Below, piece after piece: positions 27,553-57,545 of a DNA stretch of 64,000 nt. A program made the translations under genes and the position numbers. The notes under the pieces are model-generated. The model ran no database searches and was not told where the DNA came from. It was given only the letters and a program-made list of their open reading frames with translations. Source of the DNA: a virus. The first letter of the stretch is position 1. Each line of letters starts with the position of its first letter. The stretch is from positions 62,001 to 126,000 of IMG/VR virus record IMGVR_UViG_3300042923_000524. The stretch is one strand, 5' to 3'.

Positions 27553-27586
27553 TAAAGAAAATACAAATTAATTGGAGGTTTTAAAC

Positions 27587-27838
27587 ATGACTAAAAAAGA
27601 ATTATATATGAATAGAATCAATCATGCAATAATTACAAAGTATGACATTGAATTAGTTATTTTTACTGAAGGTCAAAGACATCCAGACTGTTATTACAAA
27701 GATATAGAAACTAATAGATGTTATGAAGAAACAGGAACAAAGAATTTAAAAAGTCAATTTGAGATTGTAAAAAGAAGAATCAAAAATGCTGATTTTGAAA
27801 ATACAATGAAAACTTGTCAAATACCTGAAGCCGAATAA
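27587..27838 (+). CDS. Small hypothetical protein
   Basis: 83 aa from the ATG 8 nt after GGAGG. Contains RHPDCYYKDIETNRCYE, a Cys/Tyr-rich centre between helices. In an operon with a small membrane protein. Function unknown. Confidence 0.55.
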   Translation: MTKKELYMNRINHAIITKYDIELVIFTEGQRHPDCYYKDIETNRCYEETGTKNLKSQFEIVKRRIKNADFENTMKTCQIPEAE

Positions 27839-27856
27839 AAATAAAAGGAGAAAATA

Positions 27857-28060
27857 ATGGATTGGATTTTATCAATAGTATCTATGGTAATGCTTTGGAT
27901 GATGGGCAATAAAAATAAGTATGCTCCATTTATAGGGATAATTGCACAAGTGCTATGGATATATTATGCAATATCATTAAAACAATATGGATTATTAGTT
28001 GGAACTATTGGATATTTAGTTATACATATTAGAAATGCTGTAAAATGGCAAAAGAATTAA
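27857..28060 (+). CDS. Small two-helix membrane protein
   Basis: 67 aa with three hydrophobic stretches (ILSIVSMVMLWMMG, FIGIIAQVLWIYYAISL, LLVGTIGYLVIHI). Small inner-membrane proteins of this size in phages often interfere with host processes or act in lysis, but there is no specific evidence here. Confidence 0.55.
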   Translation: MDWILSIVSMVMLWMMGNKNKYAPFIGIIAQVLWIYYAISLKQYGLLVGTIGYLVIHIRNAVKWQKN

Positions 28061-28363
28061 TTTGACCATAAAATAACAATTTCAAAGACTATTATAAAGC
28101 CTTTTGGATGCCCTCCAGAGGCTTTAATTTTATCTATGAATAAACATAATAGCATTATAGCAGTATTATATATTATAATATCTGGATGCCTTAAAAACGA
28201 TTTAAAAGCCTTGAAATTGTAGTAAAGTTATATTTATTGAGATGGCAGCAACGTATATTTTAATAATTTTAAATTAAATAATGAATATAAAATTTAGTTA
28301 TTGACTATAATAATATTGATATGATATAATTAAATTAATACATATTAAAAAGGAGTGATTACC
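28061..28363 (+). other. Terminator, gap and promoter
   Basis: An intrinsic terminator AAAGCC...GGCTTT followed by AATTTTAT lies at 28096-28134. After a featureless stretch comes ATATAAAA (28286), TTGACT (28301-28306) and TATAAT (28325-28330) with an 18-nt spacer, the promoter of 28364. Confidence 0.65.
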
Positions 28364-29041
28364 ATGACAAGTAAAGATATAAAAGAAATAGTAGAAGTAT
28401 GGAAGGCTCAACCAATAGAAAGATTTAGAGATAATGTAGAAAGTTATACAAGAGCAATAAAAAGACATGAAAACGAGATACAAGAAATATTATTAAAAAT
28501 GCAACAATTAGATGTTAATCATAAATATTATATTGATAAAATGAAGAATATGAATAGTGACATTAAAACAGCATTAGGATTTTTAAAAGAAGACAAAGCA
28601 CTTGTTGAAGCATCGCAACCAGAGCTTGAAAAAGCAGAAAATGAAATAAAAATACTTGAAGAGTCAAAGAAACCTCAATTTGAAGTATTAAAAAACTTTG
28701 TAGAGCAATGGAAAACTGAAGCTATAAATTATTATTTAGAACTTCTTAAAAATGGCTATGATGGCAAAGACGATTATATAATAGACTTATTACAAAGAGG
28801 AGAAAAATATATAATAAATCTTTACACAATAGAAGCTAAAGCAAGGCTAGTAAATATGATAACATTGATAAAAGAAAAGACTGGCGAAGTAATATCTTGT
28901 AATTTATACGGAAGTGGAAACAATCAAAAGTTTGGTTTTGAGGGAACAGTAACAGGAGAAAAGAAAACAGTAAGAGTCGAAGCAATTTTAGCAGGTGGAT
29001 GGAATATTCAAAAACTACATGTAAGACTATTAATAAATTAA
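28364..29041 (+). CDS. Coiled-coil protein
   Basis: 225 aa from the ATG 8 nt after AAGGAGTG. Residues ~15-110 form a charged coiled coil (KRHENEIQEILLKMQQL...); the C-terminal 70 residues are beta-rich (GNNQKFGFEGTVTGEKKTVRVEAIL) with a compact look. No family recognised; a single-gene unit. Confidence 0.55.
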   Translation: MTSKDIKEIVEVWKAQPIERFRDNVESYTRAIKRHENEIQEILLKMQQLDVNHKYYIDKMKNMNSDIKTALGFLKEDKALVEASQPELEKAENEIKILEESKKPQFEVLKNFVEQWKTEAINYYLELLKNGYDGKDDYIIDLLQRGEKYIINLYTIEAKARLVNMITLIKEKTGEVISCNLYGSGNNQKFGFEGTVTGEKKTVRVEAILAGGWNIQKLHVRLLIN

Positions 29042-29072
29042 AGAGTTAGAAATAACTCTTTTTTCTTTTAAT
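29040..29072 (+). terminator. Intrinsic terminator
   Basis: AAGAGTTA-gaaa-TAACTCTT followed by TTTTCTTTT. Confidence 0.9.
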
Positions 29073-29089
29073 AAGAATGAATATAAAAA

Positions 29090-29125
29090 TTATATTTGAC
29101 AATACTATTGTTAGCGTGTTAAAAT
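29090..29125 (+). promoter_or_regulatory. Sigma-A-like promoter with upstream ATATAAAA
   Basis: ATATAAAA just before TTGACA (29096-29101), an 18-nt spacer and TAAAAT (29120-29125). Confidence 0.65.
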
Positions 29126-29159
29126 GAGTTATAATCTAAATTTAAGGAGTGAGTATTTT

Positions 29160-29315
29160 ATGAGTATGTATATAATAGAAGTTAACGAAGACGGCGAAAA
29201 TATGCAATATGAGTATGGCAGCAAGGCACATGCTGAAGAGCATTATAATTTTGAAGCACATTGTACAATGTATGAATATATAGATGGTAAACATTATTAC
29301 ATGAAATCTAAGTAA
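29160..29315 (+). CDS. Small hypothetical protein
   Basis: 51 aa, MSMYIIEVNEDGENMQYEYG..., acidic and rich in Tyr, His and Glu. AAGGAGTG upstream and a terminator (29325-29354, AATAGGCT/AGCCTATT plus T-run) downstream. Function unknown. Confidence 0.5.
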   Translation: MSMYIIEVNEDGENMQYEYGSKAHAEEHYNFEAHCTMYEYIDGKHYYMKSK

Positions 29316-29324
29316 ATATGATTA

Positions 29325-29354
29325 TAAAATAGGCTGAATAAAGCCTATTTTTTT
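29325..29354 (+). terminator. Intrinsic terminator
   Basis: AAATAGGCT-gaata-AGCCTATTT followed by a T-run. Confidence 0.9.
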
Positions 29355-29438
29355 TATGTATTGACTTCCTATAAACTCATGTTACAATTAAAGAGAATAC
29401 ATAACACATATAAAATTAATAAAGGAGGAAACGAATTA

Positions 29439-30314
29439 TTGAATGTATTATCATTATTTGATGGAGGCTCATGCGGTCAAGTAGCATTACAGAGGGCAAA
29501 TATAAAAGTAGAAAAATATTATGCTAGTGAAATAAATCCAAATAGCGTAAAAGTAACACAAAAGAATTACCCTAATACAATACAGCTTGGAGATGTAACA
29601 CAACTAAACAAAGAAAAATTATTAAATTTAGGTAAAATTGATTTATTAATTGGTGGTAGTCCCTGCGAAGATTTAACAATAACCGCAATTGATAGAAAAG
29701 ATATTAACAAAGGTTTAGAAGGTAAAAAGTCAAAGTTGTTTTATAATTATGTGGATGCTCTTAATATTATTAAACCTAAATACTTTTTACTTGAAAATGT
29801 TGCAAGTATGACAAAAGAAAATATAGATATAATATCTAGTGAATTAGGAGTAAAACCAATATTAATAAATAGTAATTTAGTATCGGCTCAGGATAGGGAA
29901 AGACTTTACTGGACTAATATTACAGGTATTGCACAGCCAAAAAATAAAGAAATTTTATTAAAACACGTCTTGCAGCGAGATGTAGAAGAAAAATTTTACT
30001 ACAATAAACCCTTTGAATTTTATGGATTAGATAAAAAAGTATGTGCGAAATTGTTAGTAAATTCTCATGATTTAGTTAAAAGAGTTTATAATCCAGATTT
30101 TAAATGTGCAACATTAACAGCTGTACAAGGTGGATATCAAGAGAAAAAAGTTTATATAAATAGTAGAGTTAGAAAATTAACACCAATAGAATATGAAAGA
30201 CTTCAGACTTTACCAGATAATTATACATATGGAGTTAGCAATACAGCACGCTATAGTATTTGTGGAGATGGTTGGACAGTTGATATAATAGCACATATTT
30301 TTAAAAATATATAA
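29439..30314 (+). CDS. DNA cytosine-5 methyltransferase
   Basis: 291 aa from a TTG 9 nt after AAAGGAGG. C5-methyltransferase motifs in order are LSLFDGGSCGQ (I), GGSPCEDLT with catalytic Cys76 (IV), FLLENVASM (VI) and QDRERLYW (VIII), ending in PIEYERLQTLPDNYT and GDGWTVDIIAHI (IX-X). Small solitary phage enzymes of this type protect phage DNA or mimic host marks.  No cognate restriction gene is nearby. Confidence 0.85.
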   Translation: MNVLSLFDGGSCGQVALQRANIKVEKYYASEINPNSVKVTQKNYPNTIQLGDVTQLNKEKLLNLGKIDLLIGGSPCEDLTITAIDRKDINKGLEGKKSKLFYNYVDALNIIKPKYFLLENVASMTKENIDIISSELGVKPILINSNLVSAQDRERLYWTNITGIAQPKNKEILLKHVLQRDVEEKFYYNKPFEFYGLDKKVCAKLLVNSHDLVKRVYNPDFKCATLTAVQGGYQEKKVYINSRVRKLTPIEYERLQTLPDNYTYGVSNTARYSICGDGWTVDIIAHIFKNI

Positions 30315-30406
30315 TGACTTATATAAAATTATCAATAGTTATTGACATATAAAACGTTGTAGTATAATATAATATATAAGATACTACATAAAAAAGGAGT
30401 GAAGTC

Positions 30407-30634
30407 ATGAAGATATATTATACATTAAACTCCGAAGAACTTGGAGAAGAAGCAAAGAAAGAAACATTAATAAATATTTATAATGAATGGCTGAGATATA
30501 AGAAAGATGATAAAGAAACGGGAGACAAGAAGACATATTATTTTATTAAACATGAAATAGAAAACAATGTTGATAATACAACAGAAGGAAAAGTTTATAA
30601 AAGAGGTAATCAAATTTATTTTAAATCAATATAA
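30407..30634 (+). CDS. Small hypothetical protein
   Basis: 75 aa, MKIYYTLNSEELGEEAKKE..., acidic helix then basic middle (RYKKDDKETGDKK). Strong AAGGAGTG site. ATATAAAA (30321) and TTGACA (30342) lie upstream. Function unknown. Confidence 0.55.
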   Translation: MKIYYTLNSEELGEEAKKETLINIYNEWLRYKKDDKETGDKKTYYFIKHEIENNVDNTTEGKVYKRGNQIYFKSI

Positions 30635-30653
30635 TATTAAGGAGTTGTTATAA

Positions 30654-30806
30654 TTGGCTATTATGACAGATAAAGAATTACAAAATATAGCAAGTGATTT
30701 ATTTCGTAAATATTGGAATATGGATTTAACTATTTCTGTTTCGGTTAATCCTAAAATGTATAAATGGTCTGCAAGATGTTACCCTATGACAGTTGGGAAA
30801 CATTAA
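30654..30806 (+). CDS. Short protein, possibly a truncated gene
   Basis: 50 aa from a TTG after AAGGAGTTGTTATAA. MAIMTDKELQNIASDLFRKYW...SVNPKMYKWSARCYPMTVGKH looks like the start of a longer metallopeptidase- or SprT-like domain cut short by a stop. A terminator follows at 30847-30872. Decayed remnant or genuine small protein cannot be separated. Confidence 0.45.
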   Translation: MAIMTDKELQNIASDLFRKYWNMDLTISVSVNPKMYKWSARCYPMTVGKH

Positions 30807-30846
30807 TAAATAGAGGATATAAGAAAAGAATTTAGCAGTTTATTAA

Positions 30847-30872
30847 TTGCAGCCGAAAGGCTGTTTTTAATT
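30847..30872 (+). terminator. Intrinsic terminator
   Basis: GCAGCC-gaaa-GGCTGT followed by TTTTAA. Confidence 0.85.
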
Positions 30873-30976
30873 TCACGACAAAACACTTCTTTCATGGTCA
30901 TTACTGGAGCAGATTATTTTTAAAAATCATGTATCAACTTTAAACTAAAAGCATATAATAAATTAACCAAATACAA

Positions 30977-31029
30977 ATATAAAACTTTTAAAATATTTGT
31001 TGACAGAAATTTCTAGCATATGTTATAAT
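30977..31029 (+). promoter_or_regulatory. Sigma-A-like promoter with upstream ATATAAAA
   Basis: AAATATAAAAC (about 30977), TTGACA (31000-31005), 18-nt spacer, TATAAT (31024-31029). Drives the 31062 gene and the ribozyme that follows it. Confidence 0.7.
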
Positions 31030-31061
31030 GAATTATCGAATAAATTATAGAAGGTGAAATC

Positions 31062-31295
31062 ATGAAACAATATAGAACATCATATAAAAAAGTTAATGAC
31101 TTATGCAACTTATTAGAGTATAGACTTGTAAAACATGAATGGTTAGGGAAAACAGATTATTTTTATAATTACTCTCTTGTAAAAGATGAAAACGGACGTT
31201 ATAAAGAAACAATTCTAAAAACAACTAGCTTGAAAAATGTTTATGAATGGTTATTAGAAAATGGAATCAATTATAATAATGGCATAAAATATTAA
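31062..31295 (+). CDS. Small hypothetical protein
   Basis: 77 aa, MKQYRTSYKKVNDLCNLLEY..., basic, mixed alpha/beta. Its stop is two bases before a candidate pistol ribozyme, so the mRNA is probably cut just downstream. Function unknown. Confidence 0.55.
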   Translation: MKQYRTSYKKVNDLCNLLEYRLVKHEWLGKTDYFYNYSLVKDENGRYKETILKTTSLKNVYEWLLENGINYNNGIKY

Positions 31296-31296
31296 A

Positions 31297-31368
31297 TCTC
31301 GACTATGCGAGTATAAACAGACTTTAAGCATAGAGCGTTAACAGGTTTAACAGCCTGTTAGGTAGTAA
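31297..31368 (+). ncRNA. Candidate pistol self-cleaving ribozyme A
   Basis: Folded by eye: P1 CTCG/CGAG (31298-31311) with loop ACTATG pairing to GCATAG (31328-31333) as the pseudoknot; junction TATAAACAG; conserved GCGT (31335-31338); P3 TAACAGG/CCTGTTA (31339-31360); then GGT and AGT pairing with ACT (P2). The order and the GG-U cleavage context match the pistol consensus as I remember it. It would cleave between 31362 and 31363. A second copy lies at 33500. Confidence 0.75.
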
Positions 31369-31399
31369 TAAATAATAAATTAATAGGAGTGATTTATCA

Positions 31400-31537
31400 A
31401 TGCCAAGTAAAACAGTAAGAGAAACGGAATATAATAAAACAATCCAATATAAAGACGGACAAATGACATATTGTATCAACTATAGAAAAGAATTTCATAA
31501 ATCATTTATAAATGGTTTTAGATGGGTAGAATGTTAA
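31400..31537 (+). CDS. Small basic protein
   Basis: 45 aa, MPSKTVRETEYNKTIQYKDG..., starting 10 nt after TAGGAGTG. It is the first gene downstream of ribozyme A. Function unknown. Confidence 0.5.
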   Translation: MPSKTVRETEYNKTIQYKDGQMTYCINYRKEFHKSFINGFRWVEC

Positions 31538-31589
31538 TTCAATAAAATCCAAATTTGGTCATCATGTAAAAATTTAGGAGGTGCGTATA

Positions 31590-31697
31590 ATGTGTAGAAT
31601 CTGTGGAGCAGAAACAAAAGAAACTATTTGTAAAGAGTGTCAAAAAGAATTAATCAAAGAAAACTATAACAAAACTTTTATTAAAATATCAAAATAA
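31590..31697 (+). CDS. Tiny zinc-knuckle protein
   Basis: 35 aa, MCRICGAETKETICKECQKE..., two CxxC pairs forming a likely zinc ribbon. AGGAGGTG upstream. A leader hairpin of the ACCAAAT/ATTTGGT family partly precedes it. Function unknown. Confidence 0.5.
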   Translation: MCRICGAETKETICKECQKELIKENYNKTFIKISK

Positions 31698-31725
31698 AAA
31701 TATAAAATTATAGGAGAGTGTAAAA

Positions 31726-31938
31726 ATGAGCAATTACAATTTAAATAGCAAACAAGTAGCCTTAATTATACAATCCCTTTTAAATGATGCCTGTTTTTAT
31801 GAATGTGATAATAAAGAATATGAAAAGACAGTTAAAAAAGAAGGGCACGAACTAATTAACTTTTTATTAGAACAACACAATAAACAAGAATCAGAAACAT
31901 TAAAACACTATAATAATTATGTTGAAGGAGTGAATTAA
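31726..31938 (+). CDS. Small helical protein
   Basis: 70 aa, MSNYNLNSKQVALIIQSLLND..., mostly helical. ATATAAAATTA directly precedes its GGAGAG. The stop lies within the leader of 31941. Function unknown. Confidence 0.5.
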   Translation: MSNYNLNSKQVALIIQSLLNDACFYECDNKEYEKTVKKEGHELINFLLEQHNKQESETLKHYNNYVEGVN

Positions 31939-31940
31939 AA

Positions 31941-32090
31941 ATGAAAGATTTATTTGAAAAATTAGAATATGCAAAAAAGGCGGTATTAAGAACATTAGAA
32001 AAAGAAAGTTGTTCAGTTGATTTTCATGGTTTATCATATTGGGCAAATGAAGTAGAGCGTTTACGCAATGAAATTAAAAAGATATTATAA
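31941..32090 (+). CDS. Small helical protein
   Basis: 49 aa, MKDLFEKLEYAKKAVLRTLE..., amphipathic helices. GGAGTG in the end of the preceding gene. A terminator (32100-32116, AAGCCT/AGGCTT plus T-run) closes the unit. Function unknown. Confidence 0.5.
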   Translation: MKDLFEKLEYAKKAVLRTLEKESCSVDFHGLSYWANEVERLRNEIKKIL

Positions 32091-32097
32091 TATTAAG

Positions 32098-32128
32098 AGA
32101 AGCCTGTAAAAAGGCTTTTTCTTTTATC
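32098..32128 (+). terminator. Intrinsic terminator
   Basis: AAGCCT-gtaaa-AGGCTT followed by TTTCTTTT. Confidence 0.75.
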
Positions 32129-32192
32129 TAATATCCAGACCAAATAGATGTTTTATTGTCATATAATGTCGATAAGTTTTATAATAATTAAT

Positions 32193-32243
32193 ATAAAATT
32201 GAGCAAAATAATGTTGACAGATTAAAAACACGTATGTTATAAT
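32193..32243 (+). promoter_or_regulatory. Sigma-A-like promoter with upstream ATATAAAA
   Basis: AATATAAAATT (about 32191), TTGACA (32214-32219), 18-nt spacer, TATAAT (32238-32243). Confidence 0.7.
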
Positions 32244-32319
32244 TAGTTATACCAATTAATTAGAAATTCAATAATAACAAATAACAAATAACAAATATAA
32301 AATATAAGGAGTGGAAATT

Positions 32320-32991
32320 ATGAAAAAAACATTATATTTTGAAGGTGCAGGATGGTCGGGAGCAGATATAAGCCAAAGAACAATAGGAAATTGCAGAATA
32401 AGAACAGGATTCACAAACAACGAAGGAAGAAAAATCTATTTAGAAATTACTGGTTATGAAAAATCAGCCAATGATAAAAAGATTGACAGATATTCAGAAT
32501 ATCAAGTTGGAGAAGCAATTGGATTTGTAGATTATTGTTTTTATATTGATACAGAATCAAAAGACCCTTGCAACGAATGCAGAATAAAAGACATAGAACA
32601 TAATGCAAAATTTGCTTATACAAAAGAAGGTATAACAGAGTTTATTAATAAAAATCTGAAGTGCAGCTTTGAAACTATCGAAGTATTGCCAGATTTAGGA
32701 GGTTACAGAGTACACGGAGATAACAAAACATATAGCATGATGGAAGACTACAATCATAATTCAGAACTAATTAAGACAAGAGAAGAAGTTTACAATCATT
32801 TTTACGGACTTGAAAAATCAGAAGGTAAACAATATCCAAACTTCTCTTTATGGGTAGATGATAAAGACATTCACTTATTACACTTGTTAAGACATTTTAA
32901 TGGTTATAATAAGCATTGGTCAATTCATACCGATATAGAAAACTGGAAAGAAACAATAACAGAAACCAAGTTGGGAAAATATGCCTGTTAG
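32320..32991 (+). CDS. Hypothetical protein
   Basis: 223 aa from the ATG 9 nt after AAGGAGTG. Starts MKKTLYFEGAGWSGADISQRT and contains DPCNECRIKDIEH (possible metal site) and a C-terminal LHLLRHFNGYNKHW. Reminiscent of conserved phage early proteins of unknown function. Largest protein of this stretch. Confidence 0.6.
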   Translation: MKKTLYFEGAGWSGADISQRTIGNCRIRTGFTNNEGRKIYLEITGYEKSANDKKIDRYSEYQVGEAIGFVDYCFYIDTESKDPCNECRIKDIEHNAKFAYTKEGITEFINKNLKCSFETIEVLPDLGGYRVHGDNKTYSMMEDYNHNSELIKTREEVYNHFYGLEKSEGKQYPNFSLWVDDKDIHLLHLLRHFNGYNKHWSIHTDIENWKETITETKLGKYAC

Positions 32992-33008
32992 TTAATTATT
33001 TACTGTTA

Positions 33009-33045
33009 GAGTACACTATAACAAATATAAAACTATAGTGTACTC
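33009..33045. repeat. 12-bp inverted repeat with ATATAAAA in the loop
   Basis: GAGTACACTATA (33009-33020) pairs perfectly with TATAGTGTACTC (33034-33045); the loop is the recurrent ACAAATATAAAAC motif. Terminator, operator and RNA hairpin are all possible. Confidence 0.5.
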
Positions 33046-33096
33046 CATAGAGTAAATAAAACTCTAAAAAATATAATAACAGGAGCGTGTTTATAT

Positions 33097-33498
33097 ATGA
33101 TAAAAACATTTAAGAAAGAATTAAATAGCCACGATTACAATGAAATAAGAATAATTAATTTAGAATCTGGAGAATTTACACACTATTTTCAGGATAAAAA
33201 TATAGGCTTTATATTTTCAGATTATACAACAACAGTATTTGAAATGGGCTATAAATCAGTTAAAGAATGCATTAAAGAACTAAGAAGCCGAGGTTTATTA
33301 GGTCAAGAAGTTGATTACAAAGAACAAAAAGAATCTGAAAGAATCGGTTATATTAAATTAGGCGTAGAGCGCATTAAAAGAGCAGGAAGAGTAAATACAA
33401 ATGATTTTGAAGATGTAATAACAAAGCTATCAAAATATGGTATGGGATTCTGTGATGCTCAAAATGTAATAACAGAAACATATTTATATCAAGCATAG
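33097..33498 (+). CDS. Hypothetical protein
   Basis: 133 aa, MIKTFKKELNSHDYNEIRI..., with a basic helical centre (KECIKELRSRG, RIGYIKLGVERIKRAG) that could bind nucleic acid. Stop is directly before pistol ribozyme B. Function unknown. Confidence 0.55.
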   Translation: MIKTFKKELNSHDYNEIRIINLESGEFTHYFQDKNIGFIFSDYTTTVFEMGYKSVKECIKELRSRGLLGQEVDYKEQKESERIGYIKLGVERIKRAGRVNTNDFEDVITKLSKYGMGFCDAQNVITETYLYQA

Positions 33499-33499
33499 C

Positions 33500-33575
33500 A
33501 ACAGGTCACAGCCTGTATAAATAGTGCTTTAAGCTGTGAGCGTGTCAAGGTATAACAGCCTTGACGATAGCAAAA
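33500..33575 (+). ncRNA. Candidate pistol self-cleaving ribozyme B
   Basis: P1 ACAGG/CCTGT (33501-33516) with loop TCACAG pairing to CTGTGA (33534-33539); junction ATAAATAG then TGCTTTAA; GCGT (33540-33543); P3 GTCAAGG/CCTTGAC (33544-33565) with loop TATAACAG; GAT, then AGCA pairing with TGCT (P2). All helices differ in sequence from ribozyme A but keep pairing, while the single-stranded bases are shared. The cleavage position would be A-U (33567/33568) rather than G-U. Confidence 0.78.
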
Positions 33576-33599
33576 TAAAGGTTTAGGAGGTCGTTAAAC

Positions 33600-33908
33600 A
33601 TGAGTTATAATAAGGCTATGAAGCATTCAAACAATCATAGAAAAGATAAATACTATCAACCAGTTTTAGGTATGCCCTTTGAAGGTTTAAAAGAAGGAGA
33701 GCATATAGAAAGCTATCAAAGTATAGCAGAAAGAACAGCAGAATCATATCATGTTAAAGCTTTTAACGAAATAAATAATACATGGGAAAGAATGTCTAAG
33801 GATTTTTTAACAGAATCAGAAGCGATTGACGAAAGTTTTATATTTGACGAAAAGGGTTATAGAACTAGAATATATAGTGATAAAGATATGAGAGTTGCAG
33901 GATGGTAA
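33600..33908 (+). CDS. Hypothetical protein
   Basis: 102 aa, MSYNKAMKHSNNHRKDKYYQ..., basic start, acidic middle. AGGAGG site 9 nt upstream. It is the gene downstream of ribozyme B and upstream of the TATAACAG-rich stretch. Function unknown. Confidence 0.55.
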   Translation: MSYNKAMKHSNNHRKDKYYQPVLGMPFEGLKEGEHIESYQSIAERTAESYHVKAFNEINNTWERMSKDFLTESEAIDESFIFDEKGYRTRIYSDKDMRVAGW

Positions 33909-34234
33909 AAACACTATAACAGCCGAGGTATTTTAAACCATGAAGTTTTAAAAAGTTACTATAACAGTCGACACAAAATAGTTGACGAAGTTTTCTTATA
34001 ACAGAAAGCACTTTTTACTTCATGGATTTTAACTATAACAGCAAGTTTAAAATGGTTGACCGACTTTTGTAAATAATATATAAAAGATTGGTATAAAAGT
34101 TACTAAGACTTGACACAATATAACTAAATACAAATATAAAATTTATTTTAAAAAAGCATTGACAAAACTTTTCTATGTATGGTAAAATAAGTATAACAGG
34201 TAAACGAAAAATAAATATATTGGAGGGTTTGAAT
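33909..34234 (+). other. Structured non-coding stretch with four TATAACAG copies, then promoter
   Basis: TATAACAG recurs at about 33915, 33957, 33996 and 34032, spaced 36-42 bp. CCATGAAGT (about 33939) pairs with ACTTCATGG (about 34016), enclosing two copies; GTCGAC/GTTGAC and TTTCT/AGAAA form inner stems. The promoter of the next gene follows: ATATAAAA (34134), TTGACA (34159-34164), TAAAAT (34183-34188). Confidence 0.5.
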
Positions 34235-34363
34235 ATGGAATTAACTAAACAAGAAATACAATCAAGGATTGAGAAAATAAGCAAACTTAAAGAAACTGAA
34301 CAAGATATTCAAAAATTAAAAATCATCAATCAAGCAGTAAAAGATTTAAGTAGTTTATTATAA
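34235..34363 (+). CDS. Tiny helical protein
   Basis: 42 aa, MELTKQEIQSRIEKISKLKE..., a single long amphipathic helix, possibly a coiled coil. TGGAGGG 8 nt upstream. Function unknown. Confidence 0.5.
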   Translation: MELTKQEIQSRIEKISKLKETEQDIQKLKIINQAVKDLSSLL

Positions 34364-34419
34364 AAAGCCAATCAAAGACGTATTCAGTTGAAATTTAAAA
34401 TATGAAAGGTGGAAATAAA

Positions 34420-34743
34420 ATGAATTATATTTTTGAAAGTATCAAAAGAGAATTAGGAGAAGATTCAATTGGTTGGAGAGAAATATCAAAATTATTAGAT
34501 GCTCAACCTAAAAAAGAAGAAGTTGGTTTTAAAACAGAATTTAAAGGTGAATGCTATATAATTCAAGATGCAACAGGAAACTTTGTTTATGGCGAATGTG
34601 AAGGTGAAGGAATGGATTTTGAACAGGCACAAAAGTTTAATGATTTTAATGGAGCTTTAAGATTTGTAAATCACAATGAAGAATACGACAGTGACCATTG
34701 GAAAATATTTAAAGTAAAGATTGATTATGAAATATTAGTATAA
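34420..34743 (+). CDS. Hypothetical protein
   Basis: 107 aa, MNYIFESIKRELGEDSIGW..., acidic. Contains GECYIIQDATGNFVYGECEGEG. AAAGGTGG upstream. Its stop codon TAA lies inside a TATAACAG repeat, directly before the hammerhead candidate. Function unknown. Confidence 0.55.
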   Translation: MNYIFESIKRELGEDSIGWREISKLLDAQPKKEEVGFKTEFKGECYIIQDATGNFVYGECEGEGMDFEQAQKFNDFNGALRFVNHNEEYDSDHWKIFKVKIDYEILV

Positions 34744-34752
34744 CAGCATCCC

Positions 34753-34819
34753 TTCCCTGTCTGATGAGAGCTTGATAGTAACAAGCCGAATCCTGCTATA
34801 ACAGAGCAGGAAACAGGAA
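34753..34819 (+). ncRNA. Candidate hammerhead ribozyme (variant)
   Basis: Stem I CCTGT/ACAGG (34756-34760, 34813-34817); core CTGATGA (34761-34767); stem II GCTTG/CAAGC (34770-34786); core GAA (34788-34790); stem III TCCTGCT/AGCAGGA (34791-34811) with ATAACAG in its loop. Only the 15.1-16.1 pair is unusual: U-A instead of A-U, giving GAA at the cleavage site, so activity is uncertain. Confidence 0.6.
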
Positions 34820-34850
34820 ACTGAAATAAATATTTAGGAGTGAAATATAA

Positions 34851-35015
34851 ATGGAAAAGAACATGATAGAAATTAATAAAACAACTCGTATATCAATTGA
34901 CGATGATGGTATAATATCAATTCATCAATTAGATTGGAAAGGTAAAGACTATACAACTATTCATCTTAGCAAAGAGGCATTAAAGCAAATTACAGAGATA
35001 GTTGAAAAGGTATAA
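34851..35015 (+). CDS. Small hypothetical protein
   Basis: 54 aa, MEKNMIEINKTTRISIDDDG..., beta-rich with a C-terminal helix. TAGGAGTG upstream. The stop codon again falls within TATAACAG. Function unknown. Confidence 0.5.
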   Translation: MEKNMIEINKTTRISIDDDGIISIHQLDWKGKDYTTIHLSKEALKQITEIVEKV

Positions 35016-35075
35016 CAGTAAAATCCAGACAAAACAGTAGTTTTATCAAAATATAAATTGAAAGGATGGAATAAA

Positions 35076-35243
35076 ATGAATGATACAAAATTAGAAAATA
35101 TGATATTAACAACTAAACTATGTTTAGTAGAGGCAGAAACAAAAAGCCAAGATTTTAAAGACGGTGCAATATATATGTCAAAAAGTATTTTTAGTTCGTT
35201 GGGTATACCAGATAATGTTATAGAAAAATTTATAAAAGCATAA
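35076..35243 (+). CDS. Small hypothetical protein
   Basis: 55 aa, MNDTKLENMILTTKLCLVEA.... AAAGGATGG 8 nt upstream. Stop codon TAA is followed by CAG (ATAACAG repeat). Function unknown. Confidence 0.5.
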   Translation: MNDTKLENMILTTKLCLVEAETKSQDFKDGAIYMSKSIFSSLGIPDNVIEKFIKA

Positions 35244-35298
35244 CAGACAACGAAAGATAGATTTGGTCAAAATAAATAGATGAAAGAAGGAAAGAAAA

Positions 35299-35742
35299 AT
35301 GAAATTTGCAAAGTATTATAATGTAACAAACAAAATGAACGAAATGATTGAAAAGGGTGATTTATTTTCTTATGAAAAAGGTTTTTACAAAGGATTATAT
35401 ATCTGTAAAGATACTCATGATTTCTGGATTAGTAGAGTATTAGAAGGGTATAACAGCGAGTTTGAGCAAGAAGATGGAAAATGGTTGGTAGAGCGTAATA
35501 AAATAGATAAATATGACTTCTGTGAATTTTTAAAAGAAAAGAAAAATGATGATTCTATAATAACAGATAGACGTACTAGAGATTATTATATAGATGAATG
35601 TTTCCAAGATGAAGTAATAATGGAAACACTAATACTTATGGATGATGATAAAGGTCTTGAAGGATGGGATAACTATGAATGTGATAGTTATGAAGAGGCA
35701 GTTGAAGCCATTGATGGAGGCTACGGAATATTAACGACGTAG
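35299..35742 (+). CDS. Hypothetical acidic protein
   Basis: 147 aa, MKFAKYYNVTNKMNEMIEKG..., acidic with many aromatic residues and a C-terminal DDKGLEGWDNYECDSYEEAVEAI. AAGGAAAG upstream; preceded by a GAC...ATTTGGTC leader hairpin (35246). Function unknown. Confidence 0.55.
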   Translation: MKFAKYYNVTNKMNEMIEKGDLFSYEKGFYKGLYICKDTHDFWISRVLEGYNSEFEQEDGKWLVERNKIDKYDFCEFLKEKKNDDSIITDRRTRDYYIDECFQDEVIMETLILMDDDKGLEGWDNYECDSYEEAVEAIDGGYGILTT

Positions 35743-35822
35743 ATACAATTATATTGTGTTAGGGTGCATTATAACAGAGTGCATCCAATAGAATATAAAT
35801 ATAAAATTAAGGAGGATTTAAA

Positions 35823-35963
35823 ATGAATATAGTAAAAGAATTAGAGCAAATTCTACAACAGCCAAACTTTATGGGCAATGACAAATTAGGTTGTAATCTA
35901 GCAGTAAATCAAATACTAGATAAAATTGAAGAGCTAGGACTTGAAATAGTAGAAAAGAAATAA
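35823..35963 (+). CDS. Tiny helical protein
   Basis: 46 aa, MNIVKELEQILQQPNFMGND.... ATATAAAATTA and AAGGAGG sit directly upstream. A hairpin GGGTGCA/TGCATCC with TATAACAG in its loop (about 35758-35785) lies in the leader. Function unknown. Confidence 0.5.
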   Translation: MNIVKELEQILQQPNFMGNDKLGCNLAVNQILDKIEELGLEIVEKK

Positions 35964-36047
35964 TATAAATATCCCAATAAAATCAACATTCTGAGCCAAT
36001 TTAACGCTCTATAACAGATTGTTATAACAGAAAGGAGTCAATAGACC

Positions 36048-36278
36048 ATGAGAACATTAAAAGAGATTTATCCACCTACAAATGAATTTAATATTATATA
36101 TGCTGAGTTAATCAAAGAGGATAATAATGAAGATTATATAAAAGTTAACATACAGTATCAAGACGAATCCACAGAACAAATTAAACTTTTAATGCATGAT
36201 GATTTATTAGAAGATATCAACAGATTATCAGATTTTGAACTTTGTTATGATATAACAGAAAATGTCTATTGGGACTAG
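36048..36278 (+). CDS. Small acidic protein
   Basis: 76 aa, MRTLKEIYPPTNEFNIIYAE.... AAAGGAGTC upstream, just after two TATAACAG copies that pair as TATAACA/TGTTATA (about 36011-36028). Function unknown. Confidence 0.5.
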   Translation: MRTLKEIYPPTNEFNIIYAELIKEDNNEDYIKVNIQYQDESTEQIKLLMHDDLLEDINRLSDFELCYDITENVYWD

Positions 36279-36293
36279 GGAGGTATAACAGCC

Positions 36294-36461
36294 ATGCAAT
36301 CAGCGAACCAGAGACAAACTGATTTTGAAGTACTAAAGACAACTAATATAAAATTAAACTATAACAGAAACCCAAATGAATTCAGCAAAACTATGAATAT
36401 CACAATAACAGCAGCAACATTTATTATGATGGTTTTTCTAGCAATAAAGTTTCTATCATAA
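36294..36461 (+). CDS. Small protein with C-terminal membrane helix
   Basis: 55 aa, MQSANQRQTDFEVLKTTNIK... with a hydrophobic end (AATFIMMVFLAIKFLS). GGGAGG 10 nt upstream; the spacer is itself TATAACAG. The coding sequence carries further ATAACAG copies. Function unknown. Confidence 0.45.
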   Translation: MQSANQRQTDFEVLKTTNIKLNYNRNPNEFSKTMNITITAATFIMMVFLAIKFLS

Positions 36462-36514
36462 AATACATATAACAGTCACAAATACATATAACAGCGAACT
36501 AAGGAGGGGTCACA

Positions 36515-36664
36515 GTGAATGCAATTAGAATAATAGGTATAGATACATTTGAATACTCACAAAGTAAGATAACAGCCGACATAACAACATACTGGAAAGA
36601 GTTGTATTGGAAGAATAACAGCTATTTGACGAGATACAGAACAGTTTATGAAAACACATTATAA
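36515..36664 (+). CDS. Small protein (GTG start)
   Basis: 49 aa, MNAIRIIGIDTFEYSQSKIT..., from GTG 7 nt after AAGGAGGG. Contains two ATAACAG copies in frame. A promoter for the next gene follows (TTGACA near 36684 behind ATATAAAA). Function unknown. Confidence 0.45.
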   Translation: MNAIRIIGIDTFEYSQSKITADITTYWKELYWKNNSYLTRYRTVYENTL

Positions 36665-36752
36665 ACACAAATATAAAACTATTGACACGGAGTAAACATA
36701 TGTTAAGATTAAATTAATCAGAATAATCCAATATATTTAAGGAGTGAAAGAA

Positions 36753-44852: not shown

Positions 44853-44979
44853 TTAGTTACAATAAATTATAAAAATAAATATAAAATTTATTTGAAATGC
44901 ATATTGCATTTGTTTCCGACATATAATATAATAAGCATAATAACAAATATAAAAATTATATAAAGGAGTGGTAATTGAA

Positions 44980-45636
44980 ATGACAACATGCATTCAAAAC
45001 ATTAATAGTCACACTACATACGATAAACCAATAAACACACTAATCAACGCAGCACAAAAATTATTAGAGGTACGGAAAGGTGATTTGATATTTGTAGACT
45101 TTGACCAACTAATAAAAAGTGGTAGAGACCATAGTATACAATCGAAACCTAGACCAGCGGTAGTTTTAAGCAATAACGTTGGAAACAAGTTTTCACCTAC
45201 TATTTGGGTGGCAACATTAACTTCTAATCTTAACAAAAATAAACTACCAACACATGTAAAAGTATCTGAAGAAACAGGACTTAGATTTGATTCGTTGGTT
45301 TTAGTAGAACAGGTATTCACAATTGACAAAAAACTTATATTATCAAAAGTGGGGAAATGTTCAGCACATATAATGGAGCAAATTGACACAGCAGTTAAAA
45401 TTCAAGCAGGTACAATTGATTTAGAGTATATAGAAGATACAGTTAATTGGATTAATAAAGTAGAGTGCGAAGCTCGAATAAATGGGTTTGACCCAGAGGA
45501 TGCAAGATTACACACTAGACTAGTTAAGGAATTGCAATCTTATTGTAATCAATATGGATATGATTATACTAAGGTATTAAAAGAAAAAACATTTATAAAA
45601 GTCTCCGTGGACAATAGAAAACAAAATGCAATGTAA
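44980..45636 (+). CDS. MazF/PemK-family toxin-like protein
   Basis: 218 aa. VRKGDLIFVDFDQLIKSGRDHSIQSKPRPAVVLSN followed by TIWVATLTSN and ...VLVEQVFTIDKK is the MazF/PemK RNA-interferase fold; the C-terminal ~70 residues are an extension beyond the usual ~115 aa. No MazE-type antitoxin precedes it; the next gene, 21 nt on, is a TPR protein. It may cut RNA under control of that partner, or be a regulator. AAAGGAGTGG upstream; ATATAAAA in the leader. Confidence 0.7.
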   Translation: MTTCIQNINSHTTYDKPINTLINAAQKLLEVRKGDLIFVDFDQLIKSGRDHSIQSKPRPAVVLSNNVGNKFSPTIWVATLTSNLNKNKLPTHVKVSEETGLRFDSLVLVEQVFTIDKKLILSKVGKCSAHIMEQIDTAVKIQAGTIDLEYIEDTVNWINKVECEARINGFDPEDARLHTRLVKELQSYCNQYGYDYTKVLKEKTFIKVSVDNRKQNAM

Positions 45637-48365: not shown

Positions 48366-49331
48366 TTGAAACATTTTATTATGTATAATCCAGAATTAAA
48401 AAATGTTTATCTTAATACTATTGACAACGAAGGAACTAGAGAAAATATTGGATATACTTTTCAAAAGGCTAGAATACTAGAAGATGAAAAAGGAAAAGAT
48501 ATATGTCATTTTAATTTTGATGAATTAGGTGAATTATGGAGTAGCTTCAGAGCAAAAAGTTTTGCTGCCATTACTACTAAAGTTAGTATTATAGTTAAGT
48601 ATATTGACTTTTGTATTGATAAAGGATTGGCTGATGTAAACTACAATTGGGCAAAGATGTACTTTAATGAAGATGGATTAAGACCATATGTAAGCAAAGT
48701 TGCTATAGGTAATAAAATAATTGACAAAGAAACTTTAGAAGATATAATTGATTTTTGTGCTAACGCTCAAGATGCTGTAATCTTTGCATTATTATTTGAA
48801 GGTGTAAAGGGTAGACCAATACAAGAAAATGCCTTTGAAGAAGTTAGGAATCTTAGAATGGTTGATTGTAATACTGATACTAATGATATTATACTAAGAC
48901 AAGATGATGGTAAAACAAGAGTTATTCAAATATCTGAAAGAACTATGAATTTAATAGTAGATGCTTATAATCAACAAACGTATTTAAGAAAAAATGGCGA
49001 ATCAACCGCAAAACTTAAAGAGATAGAAATGATTGATACAGGTTATGTTTTAAAATTAGGTGATATAGGCAAGAATTCCAATTCGAGTGAAGATAGAATA
49101 AGTCATCAAGTTTTATTTAGAAGACTAAAGAATATTGCAAAAGCATATGGAAATAGTTTTTTAACACCTACTAATATTTACATGAGTGGAATGGTTGACT
49201 ATGCTCAAAGACTGCAAACTGAAAAAGGTGTAGAATTAGACAATAATGATTATATTCATATATGTGAGAAATATGGAATAGACCCTAAAAGATGGTATAA
49301 GATAAAAGTGGAGATTAAGCAGTATCTATAA
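48366..49331 (+). CDS. MrpR/YopR-like master repressor
   Basis: 321 aa from a TTG (ATG at 48381 also possible). Starts ...MYNPELKNVYL and carries VIFALLFEGVKGRPIQE and VLFRRLKNIAKAYGNSFLTPTNI in the order of the SPbeta lytic repressor MrpR (YopR) as I remember it. It has the tyrosine-recombinase fold without catalytic residues: the Arg position reads VKG and no catalytic Tyr is present. It should keep lytic promoters off during lysogeny. Confidence 0.65.
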   Translation: MKHFIMYNPELKNVYLNTIDNEGTRENIGYTFQKARILEDEKGKDICHFNFDELGELWSSFRAKSFAAITTKVSIIVKYIDFCIDKGLADVNYNWAKMYFNEDGLRPYVSKVAIGNKIIDKETLEDIIDFCANAQDAVIFALLFEGVKGRPIQENAFEEVRNLRMVDCNTDTNDIILRQDDGKTRVIQISERTMNLIVDAYNQQTYLRKNGESTAKLKEIEMIDTGYVLKLGDIGKNSNSSEDRISHQVLFRRLKNIAKAYGNSFLTPTNIYMSGMVDYAQRLQTEKGVELDNNDYIHICEKYGIDPKRWYKIKVEIKQYL

Positions 49332-49398
49332 TTTAAAAATAAAGTAGTTTTATTACTACTTTAACAAATACAAATATAAAATTTATTTAATAAAAGTG

Positions 49399-49430
49399 TT
49401 GACAAAGGCAAAAAGTGGTAGTAGTATTAT
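49399..49430 (+). promoter_or_regulatory. Promoter upstream of small genes
   Basis: TTGACA (49399-49404), then AGTATT or TATTAT 18-20 nt on, preceded by AAATATAAAATT (about 49373). Precedes the 26-aa membrane peptide. Confidence 0.5.
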
Positions 49431-49447: not shown

Positions 49448-49528
49448 ATGAAACAATATGGATATATGATTCTTGTTTTAGGTATTATTGGAGTGGCTAT
49501 AGCAGTGGTAATAAGATTTATAAAATAA
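49448..49528 (+). CDS. Tiny membrane peptide
   Basis: 26 aa, MKQYGYMILVLGIIGVAIAV..., one transmembrane helix. AGAGGTGAG upstream. Followed by an ACCAAAT/ATTTGGT leader hairpin (49532-49550). Possibly a small toxin-like or regulatory peptide; unknown. Confidence 0.45.
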   Translation: MKQYGYMILVLGIIGVAIAVVIRFIK

Positions 49529-50430: not shown

Positions 50431-50690
50431 TAAAGGCGGTCTTAGCAAAGGAGTAAAACCTTTAATTGTCTGCAAGGATAATTTCGCCTATAGTCGAGAT
50501 AGTGACAAGTAAATCTTATTAATAAGTTTTGTAATACACTCGATAAGGTAATAAGTGCGAAAGTGAAGCGAACGTGTTTCTACTGTAGTATTCGCACCTA
50601 TTGAAACTGCTAACACAAAGTCCGTTAGCACAACTTATAATTAAATACAATTGTAACAATTGAATAGTTTCGCATTATTATAACTTAAAA
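50431..50690 (+). ncRNA. Predicted tracrRNA of the Cas12f system
   Basis: Helices: AGGCG/CGCCT (50434-50489), TCGAG/CTCGA (50494-50543) followed by TAAGGT, AATAAGTGCGAA/TTCGCACCTATT (50550-50602, one mismatch), inner GAAGC/GTTTC, and TGCTAAC/GTTAGCA (50608-50630). Then ACAACTTATAATTAAATACA and TTGTAAC (50630-50657) is nearly the complement of the array repeat, an anti-repeat. The TCGAG...CTCGATAAGGT core resembles published Cas12f1 tracrRNAs from memory. Confidence 0.75.
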
Positions 50691-50722
50691 GTGTTGAAAA
50701 TGCTGTTTTGGATTTGTAAGCA

Positions 50723-51017
50723 GTTACAATTTGTATATTATATAGGTTGTAAGTTTTAGAGCATTGATTTCTGTTTCTATTGCGTTTAAAGTTACAATTT
50801 GTATATTATATGAGTTGTAAGTTACTTTGCAAATGTCGAAAATAGATGTATAATTATTACAATTTGTATATAAATATGGGTTGTAAGTTGACTACAGGTG
50901 TTAATATTTATTTATTCTTCATGTTGCAGTGTATTATATGAGCTGTAAGTTTAAAAGCCATTTATAAAATCATCTTTGTATTTGCTTTTGCAATCTGTAT
51001 ATTATATGAGTTCTAAG
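50723..51017 (+). CRISPR. Degenerate five-repeat CRISPR array of the Cas12f system
   Basis: Repeats of about 31 nt begin GTTACAATTTGT and end GAGTTGTAAG. R1 50723-50753, R2 50791-50821 (2 changes), R3 50856-50887, R4 50923-50949 (4-nt deletion), R5 50987-51017. Four unrelated spacers of 34-37 nt lie between them: 50754-50790, 50822-50855, 50888-50922 and 50950-50986. A repeat 3' end (GGATTTGTAAG) just before R1 hints at a lost sixth unit. Repeat ends TTACAA/TTGTAA are complementary. Confidence 0.8.
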
Positions 51018-51123
51018 ACATAATTAATTGGAAAAGTTAATATATAATAATAAATTGTAAATGATAGATGTTATGATGTGAATTTAATTTATATAAGAAA
51101 AAATATAAAATAGGAGAGATAAG

Positions 51124-52437
51124 ATGAATAAATGTATAAAAATAACAATAAAAAATTGTATAAATATAGATAAATATAGACAGGTATTAAGGGATTTAAG
51201 ATATCAAACTTGGTTAGCAAGTAATAAAGCTATGACTAATTATTATACTTTTGCATTAGAGAACATGGAATATAAAAACATAAATGGAATCAACATAAAT
51301 GAGAAAGAGAGATATGGTAAAAGTTATGATGCATGGATACAAAATAGAATGAATGAGATTATGACCATGCATCAAAGTGGGAATGTAGCTCAAACAGCAC
51401 AATTTGTCGCTAAGAGATTTAAAGACGATATAAAAAAAGGTATGTTTAAAGGCAAGATATCAATATCTAATTTTAAACAAGATATCCCACTTATTATACA
51501 TAATAAAAACTATAAAATCATACAGGGTGATAAGGGATATAAAATTGAATGTAGTTTATTTAATAGAGAATACCAAAAAGAAAATATTATTAAAAAAGCT
51601 GAATTTCAAATTGATAAGATTGATAATAATTGTAAAAGTGTATTAAATAGAATTATATCTGGTGAATATAAGCAGGGTTCTATGCAAATTACAGAAGATA
51701 AAAAAGGTAAATGGTATTTTATAATTAGTTATAGTTTTGAAGCATCCAAACAAACTTTTGACCAAAATAGAATATTAGGCATAGATTTAGGTATAACTAA
51801 AGTAGCTACAATGCAAATATTTGATAAAACCATTGAAGAGTGGGATAGATTATCTTGGAAAGAATGTATGATGGATGGTAGAGAGTTAATACATTATAGA
51901 CAAAAGATAGAAGCGAGAAAAAAACAATTACAAATAGCTAGTAAGTGGTGTGGAGAAGGTAGAGTTGGTCATGGTACTAAAACAAGAATGAAACCTTTAG
52001 ATAAAATAGGAAGTGTGGTAAGTAATTTTAAAGATACATATAATCATAAAATAAGCAGATATATAATAGATTTTGCTATTAAACATAATTGCGGAATAAT
52101 TCAAATGGAAGATTTAAGTGGATTTAGTGAACAACAAACAGAAAGTTTATTAAAGAATTGGAGTTATTTTGATTTACAAACTAAGATAAAATATAAAGCC
52201 GAAGAAAAGGGAGTAGAGGTTATATTTATTAATCCTCAATATACAAGTAAAAGATGTAGTAGGTGTGGTTGTATAGACACACGAAATAGAGATTGTGAAA
52301 ATAATCAATCCAAGTTTGAATGTGTAACTTGTGGTCATAAAGAAAATGCAGATATAAATGCAGCGAAAAATATTAGTATGCCTGATATTGAAGAAATTAT
52401 TGGTGAATACATAAAATATGGTTTAAAAGTAAGTTAA
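51124..52437 (+). CDS. cas12f: Cas12f (type V-F) miniature CRISPR nuclease
   Basis: 437 aa RNA-guided DNA nuclease. RuvC-I Asp221 (LGIDLGIT), RuvC-II Glu329 (QMEDLSG), zinc ribbon Cys378/381 and Cys400/403 (RCSRCG...CVTCGH), RuvC-III Asp410 (NADINAAKN); all catalytic residues intact. Cas12f-typical blocks absent from plain TnpB are QSGNVAQT (84), DIPL (120), IISGEY (177) and GRVGHGTKTRMKP (279). From memory it follows ~422-aa Cas12f1 proteins over its whole length. tracrRNA and array lie directly upstream on the same strand; no cas1, cas2 or cas4. GGAGAG 5 nt before the ATG. Confidence 0.9.
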   Translation: MNKCIKITIKNCINIDKYRQVLRDLRYQTWLASNKAMTNYYTFALENMEYKNINGININEKERYGKSYDAWIQNRMNEIMTMHQSGNVAQTAQFVAKRFKDDIKKGMFKGKISISNFKQDIPLIIHNKNYKIIQGDKGYKIECSLFNREYQKENIIKKAEFQIDKIDNNCKSVLNRIISGEYKQGSMQITEDKKGKWYFIISYSFEASKQTFDQNRILGIDLGITKVATMQIFDKTIEEWDRLSWKECMMDGRELIHYRQKIEARKKQLQIASKWCGEGRVGHGTKTRMKPLDKIGSVVSNFKDTYNHKISRYIIDFAIKHNCGIIQMEDLSGFSEQQTESLLKNWSYFDLQTKIKYKAEEKGVEVIFINPQYTSKRCSRCGCIDTRNRDCENNQSKFECVTCGHKENADINAAKNISMPDIEEIIGEYIKYGLKVS

Positions 52438-56984: not shown

Positions 56985-57545
56985 TTGATTGATAAAATAG
57001 CAACATGGATAGGCAAAATACTTTCTGATTATACAGGATTAAATGAAGTTAAGCAGATAGAATTGATATATTTTCTGAAGAGAATAATTAAAAATTTGAT
57101 ATTCTATATAATCACATTTAATATAGCAATTTTACTAAATATATTTAACCCTGTATTAATACTATTACTAAGTTATCATTGTGTAAGATTGAGGTTTGGA
57201 GGAATACATTTAAAGAATCAGACATTATGTTTAATAATAAGTATAATTGCTCCTTTGGGATTAGGATACATAGCATCTAATTATAAATTCAATTTACTTT
57301 TTATGGTAATATTATATGCCGTAATGATTTTATACGCAAATTACATAGACGTGATAGATAATATTAATAGACCCCTGACAGTTGATAAGAAGCTTAAATT
57401 TAAAAAACAAGGCTTAATAACTATGACAATATTATTTGTACTAAATATTATAATATATATACTTGATTTCGTATTAATAAGCAATAGTATCCTAATGGGA
57501 GTCTTACTAGGAGTGATATTACTTATAAGGTTTCCAATAAAATAA
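56985..57545 (+). CDS. agrB: AgrB-family peptide-processing membrane protease
   Basis: 186 aa from TTG. Catalytic pair His75 and Cys82 in RLRFGGIHLKNQTLC, the exact seven-residue spacing of AgrB, between predicted transmembrane segments (LIFYIITFNIAILL, LIISIIAPLGLGYIA, ILFVLNIIIYIL, ILMGVLLGVILLI). It should cleave and cyclise AgrD. Length is normal. Confidence 0.85.
   Translation: MIDKIATWIGKILSDYTGLNEVKQIELIYFLKRIIKNLIFYIITFNIAILLNIFNPVLILLLSYHCVRLRFGGIHLKNQTLCLIISIIAPLGLGYIASNYKFNLLFMVILYAVMILYANYIDVIDNINRPLTVDKKLKFKKQGLITMTILFVLNIIIYILDFVLISNSILMGVLLGVILLIRFPIK

What the first reader, a model, noticed from the sequence alone, without database searches (positions are those of the whole stretch)
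50431..52437. Self-contained miniature Cas12f (type V-F) CRISPR locus on a phage or phage-plasmid
Seen: a 437-aa RuvC nuclease with all catalytic residues, preceded on the same strand by five ~31-nt repeats with four unrelated 34-37-nt spacers, and before that a strongly folded RNA whose end (50630-50657) is almost the full complement of the repeat. Known: Cas12f uses a tracrRNA and such repeats; TnpB does not have an array. Inference: the locus is functional in interference but cannot acquire spacers (no cas1/cas2/cas4 in the window) and may target rival mobile elements or host genes.
Basis: partly seen in the sequence, partly recalled or inferred. Interest (0 to 1): 0.95.

Follow-up and report, generated by a model that had tools for sequence, protein, structure and literature searches.

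The report
Phage-borne miniature CRISPR (Cas12f1) locus
A temperate phage related to SPbeta carries a complete-looking but acquisition-less miniature CRISPR unit (guide RNA scaffold, short spacer array and a 437-residue Cas12f1 DNA-cutting enzyme); it belongs to a known enzyme family, with clear relatives on other phages.

Summary
Window 51124-52437 encodes a 437-aa Cas12f1 of the V-U3 (V-F1) branch. It has an intact RuvC triad (D221/E329/D410) and zinc ribbon, and its nearest solved relative is AsCas12f1 by sequence and by predicted fold. Upstream lie a tracrRNA (50431-50659), a conserved 63-nt leader, and five repeats with four 33-35-nt spacers. A covariance model built from this tracrRNA and three relatives recovers the tracrRNA beside the AsCas12f1 gene (E 1e-9). 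In five of seven cassettes tested, the antirepeat pairs best with its own repeat. The tree puts the protein with phage Cas12f1s, apart from TnpB.

The carrier is an SPbeta-like temperate phage (MrpR/YopR, YonO polymerase). The locus sits 1.1 kb after mrpR, so expression in the lysogen is plausible but not shown. No cas1 was found in the 138-kb record, and the last repeats are decayed.

Most likely the prophage uses crRNA-guided cutting to exclude competing DNA. No spacer target was found, so this step is inference. Phage-encoded V-F1/V-U3 systems are already reported, so this is a new member of a known kind.

Two side leads: relatives with two tandem tracrRNA-array cassettes, and catalytically dead Cas12f1 with multiple cassettes in gut Clostridia.

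The parts
51124..52437 (+). cas12f1 gene (437 aa; RuvC D221, E329, D410; zinc ribbon C378/C381/C400/C403)
   Evidence: PADLOC Cas12u3/Cas12f E 1e-130; AsCas12f1 E 1e-81; predicted model closest to AsCas12f1; dN/dS 0.16-0.18 against phage relatives by NG86, dS saturated
50431..50659 (+). tracrRNA (core 50494-50657)
   Evidence: Conserved in L003, L004, L037; covariance model finds homologues beside many cas12f genes, including AsCas12f1
50630..50659 (+). antirepeat at the 3' end of the tracrRNA
   Evidence: Duplex with repeats -14.8 to -22.5 kcal/mol; best site in 20 kb outside the array; pairs best with its own repeat
50660..50722 (+). conserved leader between antirepeat and first repeat (motifs TTCRCAT and TTGATATTACTG-like)
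   Evidence: Alignment with L003, L004, L037; function not known
50723..50755 (+). CRISPR repeat 1
50756..50790 (+). spacer 1 (35 nt)
   Evidence: no target found
50791..50823 (+). CRISPR repeat 2
50824..50856 (+). spacer 2 (33 nt)
   Evidence: no target found
50857..50889 (+). CRISPR repeat 3
50890..50922 (+). spacer 3 (33 nt)
   Evidence: no target found
50923..50951 (+). CRISPR repeat 4 (shortened, degenerate)
50952..50986 (+). spacer 4 (35 nt)
   Evidence: a single 20-nt match that does not extend (chance)
50987..51017 (+). CRISPR repeat 5 (terminal, degenerate, weakest duplex)
49399..49427 (+). candidate operon promoter TTGACA-17-TAGTAT after mrpR, upstream of the small genes that precede the tracrRNA
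   Evidence: consensus scan only; lacks the TAAAATTA element seen before many other promoter-like sites of this phage (by eye)
48366..49331 (+). context: MrpR/YopR-like lysogeny repressor
   Evidence: PF22822/PF22823; YopR of SPbeta phages about 26% identity
47026..48336 (+). context: DndB-domain protein in the position of SPbeta yopQ
   Evidence: PF14072; gene order as in SPBc2

Best explanation
The locus is a minimal, acquisition-less type V-F1 (V-U3) CRISPR-Cas unit carried as cargo by an SPbeta-like temperate phage. The tracrRNA pairs through its antirepeat with crRNAs from the four-spacer array. The tracrRNA-crRNA pair guides a Cas12f1 homodimer, which by analogy with characterised Cas12f1 enzymes recognises a 5' PAM and cuts dsDNA about 20-24 nt downstream with its RuvC site. 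Because it lies just behind the lysogeny repressor, it is most likely expressed in the lysogen and excludes superinfecting phages or plasmids that match its inherited spacers. Shown by sequence: protein family, intact catalytic residues, tracrRNA homology, array, repeat-antirepeat co-variation, phage context. Inferred: expression, dimerisation, PAM, cleavage, targets, timing.
For: Protein family and fold; tree apart from TnpB and inside a phage/Clostridium Cas12f1 clade; low dN/dS; tracrRNA covariance model reaching the AsCas12f1 locus; antirepeat-repeat pairing and cognate specificity; array; SPbeta-like carrier and position behind mrpR; no Cas1. Literature: V-U3 Cas12f1 proteins cleave PAM-bearing dsDNA and some, AsCas12f1 among them, interfere with plasmids in E. 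coli (PMC7229846); phages with type V effectors generally lack acquisition genes (PMC12607003).
Against: No spacer has a convincing target in IMG/VR (exact 20-nt), INPHARED, PLSDB or the own record. The array is short and its last two repeats are decaying, so it may be ageing. The expected promoter is 1 kb upstream and only a consensus match.
Confidence: 0.75

Rival explanations
1. The unit works, but on the host side: the spacers direct Cas12f1 to chromosomal or plasmid genes of the host (anti-defence or host takeover) rather than to competing phages.
For: Phage CRISPR against host defence elements is known (ICP1; PMC11656645). Virus-only searches would miss host targets.
Against: No convincing match in six Clostridiaceae genomes or in plasmids; the host is not identified, so this is weak evidence.
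Confidence: 0.12
2. A decaying remnant: intact protein but ineffective array, kept by recent arrival rather than function.
For: Repeats 4 and 5 are degenerate; no acquisition gene found; no targets found.
Against: dN/dS 0.16-0.18 against phage relatives, though dS is saturated; catalytic residues, tracrRNA and antirepeat pairing intact; the first two repeats are nearly identical.
Confidence: 0.1
3. Self-regulation through the leader: the 63-nt stretch after the antirepeat acts as a degenerate repeat plus guide that directs Cas12f1 to the operon promoter at 49399 and represses the locus (possibly beside the exclusion function).
For: A 12-nt exact match of the leader to 49391-49402, at the -35 box of the candidate operon promoter. 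In L017, L018, L042, L060 the tracrRNA runs straight into the first repeat.
Against: Match not significant in the local null (P 0.075) and absent in L004 and L037; the 'guide' position is itself conserved in four loci, as a leader or promoter would be.
Confidence: 0.05
4. An ordinary TnpB transposase gene with chance repeats.
For: NCBIfam's best model is generic guided_TnpB; PHROGs calls it transposase.
Against: Tree, PADLOC, PDB and tracrRNA model all place it in Cas12f1; array and antirepeat co-vary in relatives.
Confidence: 0.01

Closest known systems
AsCas12f1 (Acidibacillus/Sulfoacidibacillus, type V-F1/V-U3; PDB 8dzj, 8j12, 7wju)
   Same: About 36% identity over the whole length, same predicted fold, intact RuvC and zinc ribbon, homologous tracrRNA found by covariance model, array of similar unit length
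   Different: Here the tracrRNA and array precede the gene (they follow it in the AsCas12f1 locus L054), the repeats are AT-rich and decaying, and the carrier is a temperate phage
Cas12f1 on other viral contigs: L003, L004, L030 (IMG/VR) and Alicyclobacillus phage MMB025 (PV686781)
   Same: 64-67% identity for the three IMG/VR relatives; type A tracrRNA in L003 and L004; MMB025 carries Cas12f1 (annotated transposase) next to an annotated CRISPR
   Different: L030 has two tandem tracrRNA-array cassettes with other repeats; no YonO or MrpR relative was found in L003, L004 or L030 (fragments)
Virally encoded V-F1/V-U3 effectors from landfill phages (PMC12607003)
   Same: Phage-carried type V effectors near V-F1/V-U3, arrays, no acquisition machinery
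   Different: Reported at survey level in the passages read; this case adds tracrRNA, leader and a lysogeny-module context
TnpB / omegaRNA
   Same: RuvC plus zinc-ribbon ancestry
   Different: TnpB has no array or antirepeat; the tree separates the two (98/93)

Membership tests
Cas12f1, type V-F1 (V-U3) | Sequence and fold of compact Cas12f1 | tested here: met
   PADLOC E 1e-130, PDB AsCas12f1 E 1e-81, Foldseek E 4e-40, TM 0.75/0.78, tree
Cas12f1, type V-F1 (V-U3) | RuvC catalytic D-E-D and zinc ribbon CxxC...CxxC | tested here: met
   Aligned columns D221, E329, D410, C378/C381/C400/C403
Cas12f1, type V-F1 (V-U3) | tracrRNA with antirepeat, homologous to known Cas12f tracrRNA | tested here: met
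   Covariance model R1 finds the AsCas12f1-locus tracrRNA, E 1.3e-9; antirepeat pairing
Cas12f1, type V-F1 (V-U3) | CRISPR array of direct repeats with unrelated spacers | tested here: met
   Five repeats, four spacers
Cas12f1, type V-F1 (V-U3) | RNA-guided, PAM-dependent dsDNA cleavage | not testable with these tools
   Needs biochemistry; shown for V-U3 relatives in PMC7229846
Adaptive CRISPR-Cas (with acquisition) | cas1 (and cas2/cas4) in the element | tested here: not met
   No Cas1 in the 138-kb record; Cas2 and Cas4 not searched
TnpB (IS200/IS605) | Groups with TnpB; no CRISPR array | tested here: not met
   Tree 98/93; array present
SPbeta-like temperate phage (carrier) | YonO-type RNA polymerase, MrpR/YopR repressor behind yopQ, serine integrase | tested here: met
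   YonO 52% to phi3T; MrpR; yopQ-yopR order; serine recombinase
Phage-plasmid | Extrachromosomal replication and partition | tested here: inconclusive
   Actin-like/ParM domain, weak; no replication initiator identified

The most novel reading that the evidence does not exclude
The conserved leader between tracrRNA and array is a built-in natural single guide: tracrRNA fused to a degenerate repeat and a seed that binds the operon promoter, so that the phage's Cas12f1 represses its own locus while also carrying spacers against competitors.
Probability: 0.05. Interest if true: 0.7.

Novelty: new member of a known kind. Interest (0 to 1): 0.42.

Why it matters
It is a well-delimited example of a compact, single-effector CRISPR unit that a temperate phage of the SPbeta type may deploy as a lysogen. 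Few phage CRISPR systems have been tested experimentally: the 2024 review read here (PMC11656645) names only one CRISPR-encoding phage studied experimentally for anti-defence activity. It also gives a 437-aa Cas12f1 with a predicted guide scaffold, adding a distant lineage to a family of interest as small genome editors, and a covariance model that finds tracrRNAs across the family.

Tried and rejected
Spacer targets: own genome (best 4-5 mismatches in 20 apart from itself, as in shuffles), IMG/VR exact 20-mers (0, 0, 0 and 1 non-extending), INPHARED and PLSDB BLAST of tracrRNA plus array (chance-level E 0.05-1), six Clostridiaceae genomes (noise). Arrays of two other viral loci gave nothing usable.

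Leader as self-targeting guide: 13 loci tested, no general signal.

Second cassette in this phage: searched the record with two tracrRNA models and the repeat; only one cassette found.

Rfam: no match to a tracrRNA family. Close DNA relatives of the flanking 24.5 kb: none. A weak 80-bp similarity at window 13613-13693 is AT-rich chance.

Full report
WHAT IS THERE. The window is bases 62001-126000 of a 137,947-base virus record. The ORF at 51124-52437 (+, 437 aa) matches PADLOC's Cas12u3/Cas12f models at E about 1e-130 and AsCas12f1 in the PDB at E 1e-81. Pfam gives the Cas12f1-like zinc-ribbon domain. NCBIfam and PHROGs only reach generic TnpB/transposase labels or weaker Cas12f2 matches below cut-off. 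Alignment with relatives shows the RuvC triad D221, E329, D410 and the zinc-ribbon cysteines intact. An AlphaFold model (mean pLDDT 86.6) has AsCas12f1 as its best PDB matches, then SpCas12f1 and OsCas12f; TnpB structures come far lower.

THE RNA PARTS. Five repeats lie at 50723-51017, with spacers of 35, 33, 33 and 35 nt; repeats 4 and 5 are degenerate. The stretch 50616-50660 is the best partner for the repeat outside the array in 20 kb of the same strand (-22.2 kcal/mol, mean -8.4, sd 2.8). The preceding region folds a little better than shuffles (z -1.87), so energy alone is weak evidence. Conservation is stronger: four loci share the fold, with 7 pairs changed on both sides. A covariance model from those four finds tracrRNA-like hits beside cas12f in several dozen loci. 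One is L054, whose protein is AsCas12f1: E 1.3e-9, next to the repeat GTTTGCGAGCTAGCTTGTGGAGTGTGAAC. In a 7 x 7 test the antirepeats of the window, L003, L004, L037a and L030b pair best with their own repeats. The second cassette of L037 and the first of L030, for which my boundaries are less certain, do not.

PHYLOGENY. In a 68-row tree the window protein groups with viral L003 and L004 (98/89), then viral L030 (100/97), then a clade of mostly clostridial proteins (100/100). Five TnpBs form their own side (98/93). The TnpB sample is small and long-branched. dN/dS against relatives is 0.16-0.18 by NG86 with dS above 1, so saturated.

THE CARRIER. The phage encodes a YonO-type RNA polymerase 52% identical to that of phi3T, an MrpR/YopR-like repressor directly behind a DndB-domain gene as in SPBc2 yopQ-yopR, a serine recombinase, Pol III alpha, ribonucleotide reductase, NAD ligase and a tail protein. 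No near-identical phage or plasmid was found for the flanking 24.5 kb. The host is not identified; clostridial is a guess from the relatives. In SPbeta, mrpR, yopQ and neighbours are core genes most likely active in lysogeny (PMC10516654); the locus starts 1.1 kb after mrpR. A promoter-like site at 49399 lacks the TAAAATTA element that I see before many promoter-like sites in this genome. This suggests, but does not show, lysogenic expression. Cas1 is absent from the record.

TARGETS. No spacer matched the own genome beyond chance. IMG/VR exact 20-nt searches returned nothing for spacers 1-3 and one non-extending match for spacer 4. BLAST results were at noise level. What the system attacks is therefore unknown.

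LEADER. Between antirepeat and first repeat is a 63-nt stretch, about one repeat-spacer unit long, conserved in window, L003, L004 and L037. I tested whether it is a degenerate repeat plus self-targeting guide. A 12-nt match to the -35 region at 49391-49402 exists, but its local P is 0.075, it has no parallel in L004 or L037, and most other loci show nothing. I read it as a leader, possibly with the array's promoter (L003 and L004 have TGGTATGAT there).

HOW IT MOST LIKELY WORKS. Established for the family (PMC7229846; PMC8053092 abstract): Cas12f acts as an asymmetric dimer on one guide RNA and cuts PAM-flanked dsDNA about 20-24 nt from the PAM. Inferred here: the same chemistry, with the four inherited spacers as a fixed target list, expressed by the prophage against incoming DNA. 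The lack of acquisition and the worn 3' repeats fit a fixed list.

VERDICT. A confirmed phage-borne V-F1 (V-U3) CRISPR-Cas12f1 unit without a detected acquisition gene. Viral V-F1/V-U3 effectors are already reported (PMC12607003), V-U3 nucleases are characterised (PMC7229846), and Alicyclobacillus phage MMB025 carries one beside an annotated CRISPR. Hence a new member of a known kind.

SIDE LEADS. Relatives L030 and L037 carry two tandem tracrRNA-array cassettes of different repeat type before one cas12f. Several Cas12f1 proteins of gut Clostridia have lost catalytic residues in the alignment (L064, L065, L066, L068, L070; one residue in L009, L032, L071), and L064, L065, L068 and L070 have two or three tracrRNA cassettes. 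They resemble natural RNA-guided repressors and deserve their own study.

Noticed in passing
L064, L065, L066, L068, L070 (gut Clostridia MAGs); L009 (R. albus plasmid pRUMAL01): Cas12f1 homologues lacking RuvC catalytic residues by alignment (e.g. F-E-F, T-E-H, H-E-N), and L064, L065, L068, L070 with two or three tracrRNA cassettes with short arrays: candidate natural CRISPR-interference regulators.
   Followed up: partly
L030:2340-2983 and L037:2101-2890: Two tandem tracrRNA-array cassettes with different repeats ahead of a single cas12f gene (type A plus type B in C. tagluense, two type B in the viral contig).
   Followed up: partly
L017, L018, L042, L060, L065: The tracrRNA runs directly into the first CRISPR repeat without a leader, so the primary transcript could form a single guide in cis.
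   Followed up: partly
window 56985-57545: AgrB-family protein (PF04647, E 5e-21) on the phage: possible phage-encoded peptide quorum-sensing module.
   Followed up: no
window 44968-45636: PemK/MazF-family toxin domain (E 9e-25) on the phage; no antitoxin identified.
   Followed up: no
window 49448-49528: Small hydrophobic peptide ORF (about 26 aa) directly behind the promoter-like site at 49399.
   Followed up: no
window 24168-36682 and elsewhere in the record: Many promoter-like sites share an upstream TAAAATTA-like element before TTGACA and an ATTAATTATAA-like tail: probably a phage regulator site comparable to the SPbeta repeated element.
   Followed up: no
L034, L085 and L081: Clostridiaceae cas12f genes preceded by a recombinase gene (tyrosine type in L034 and L085, serine type in L081, read by eye), hinting at mobile carriage.
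   Followed up: no
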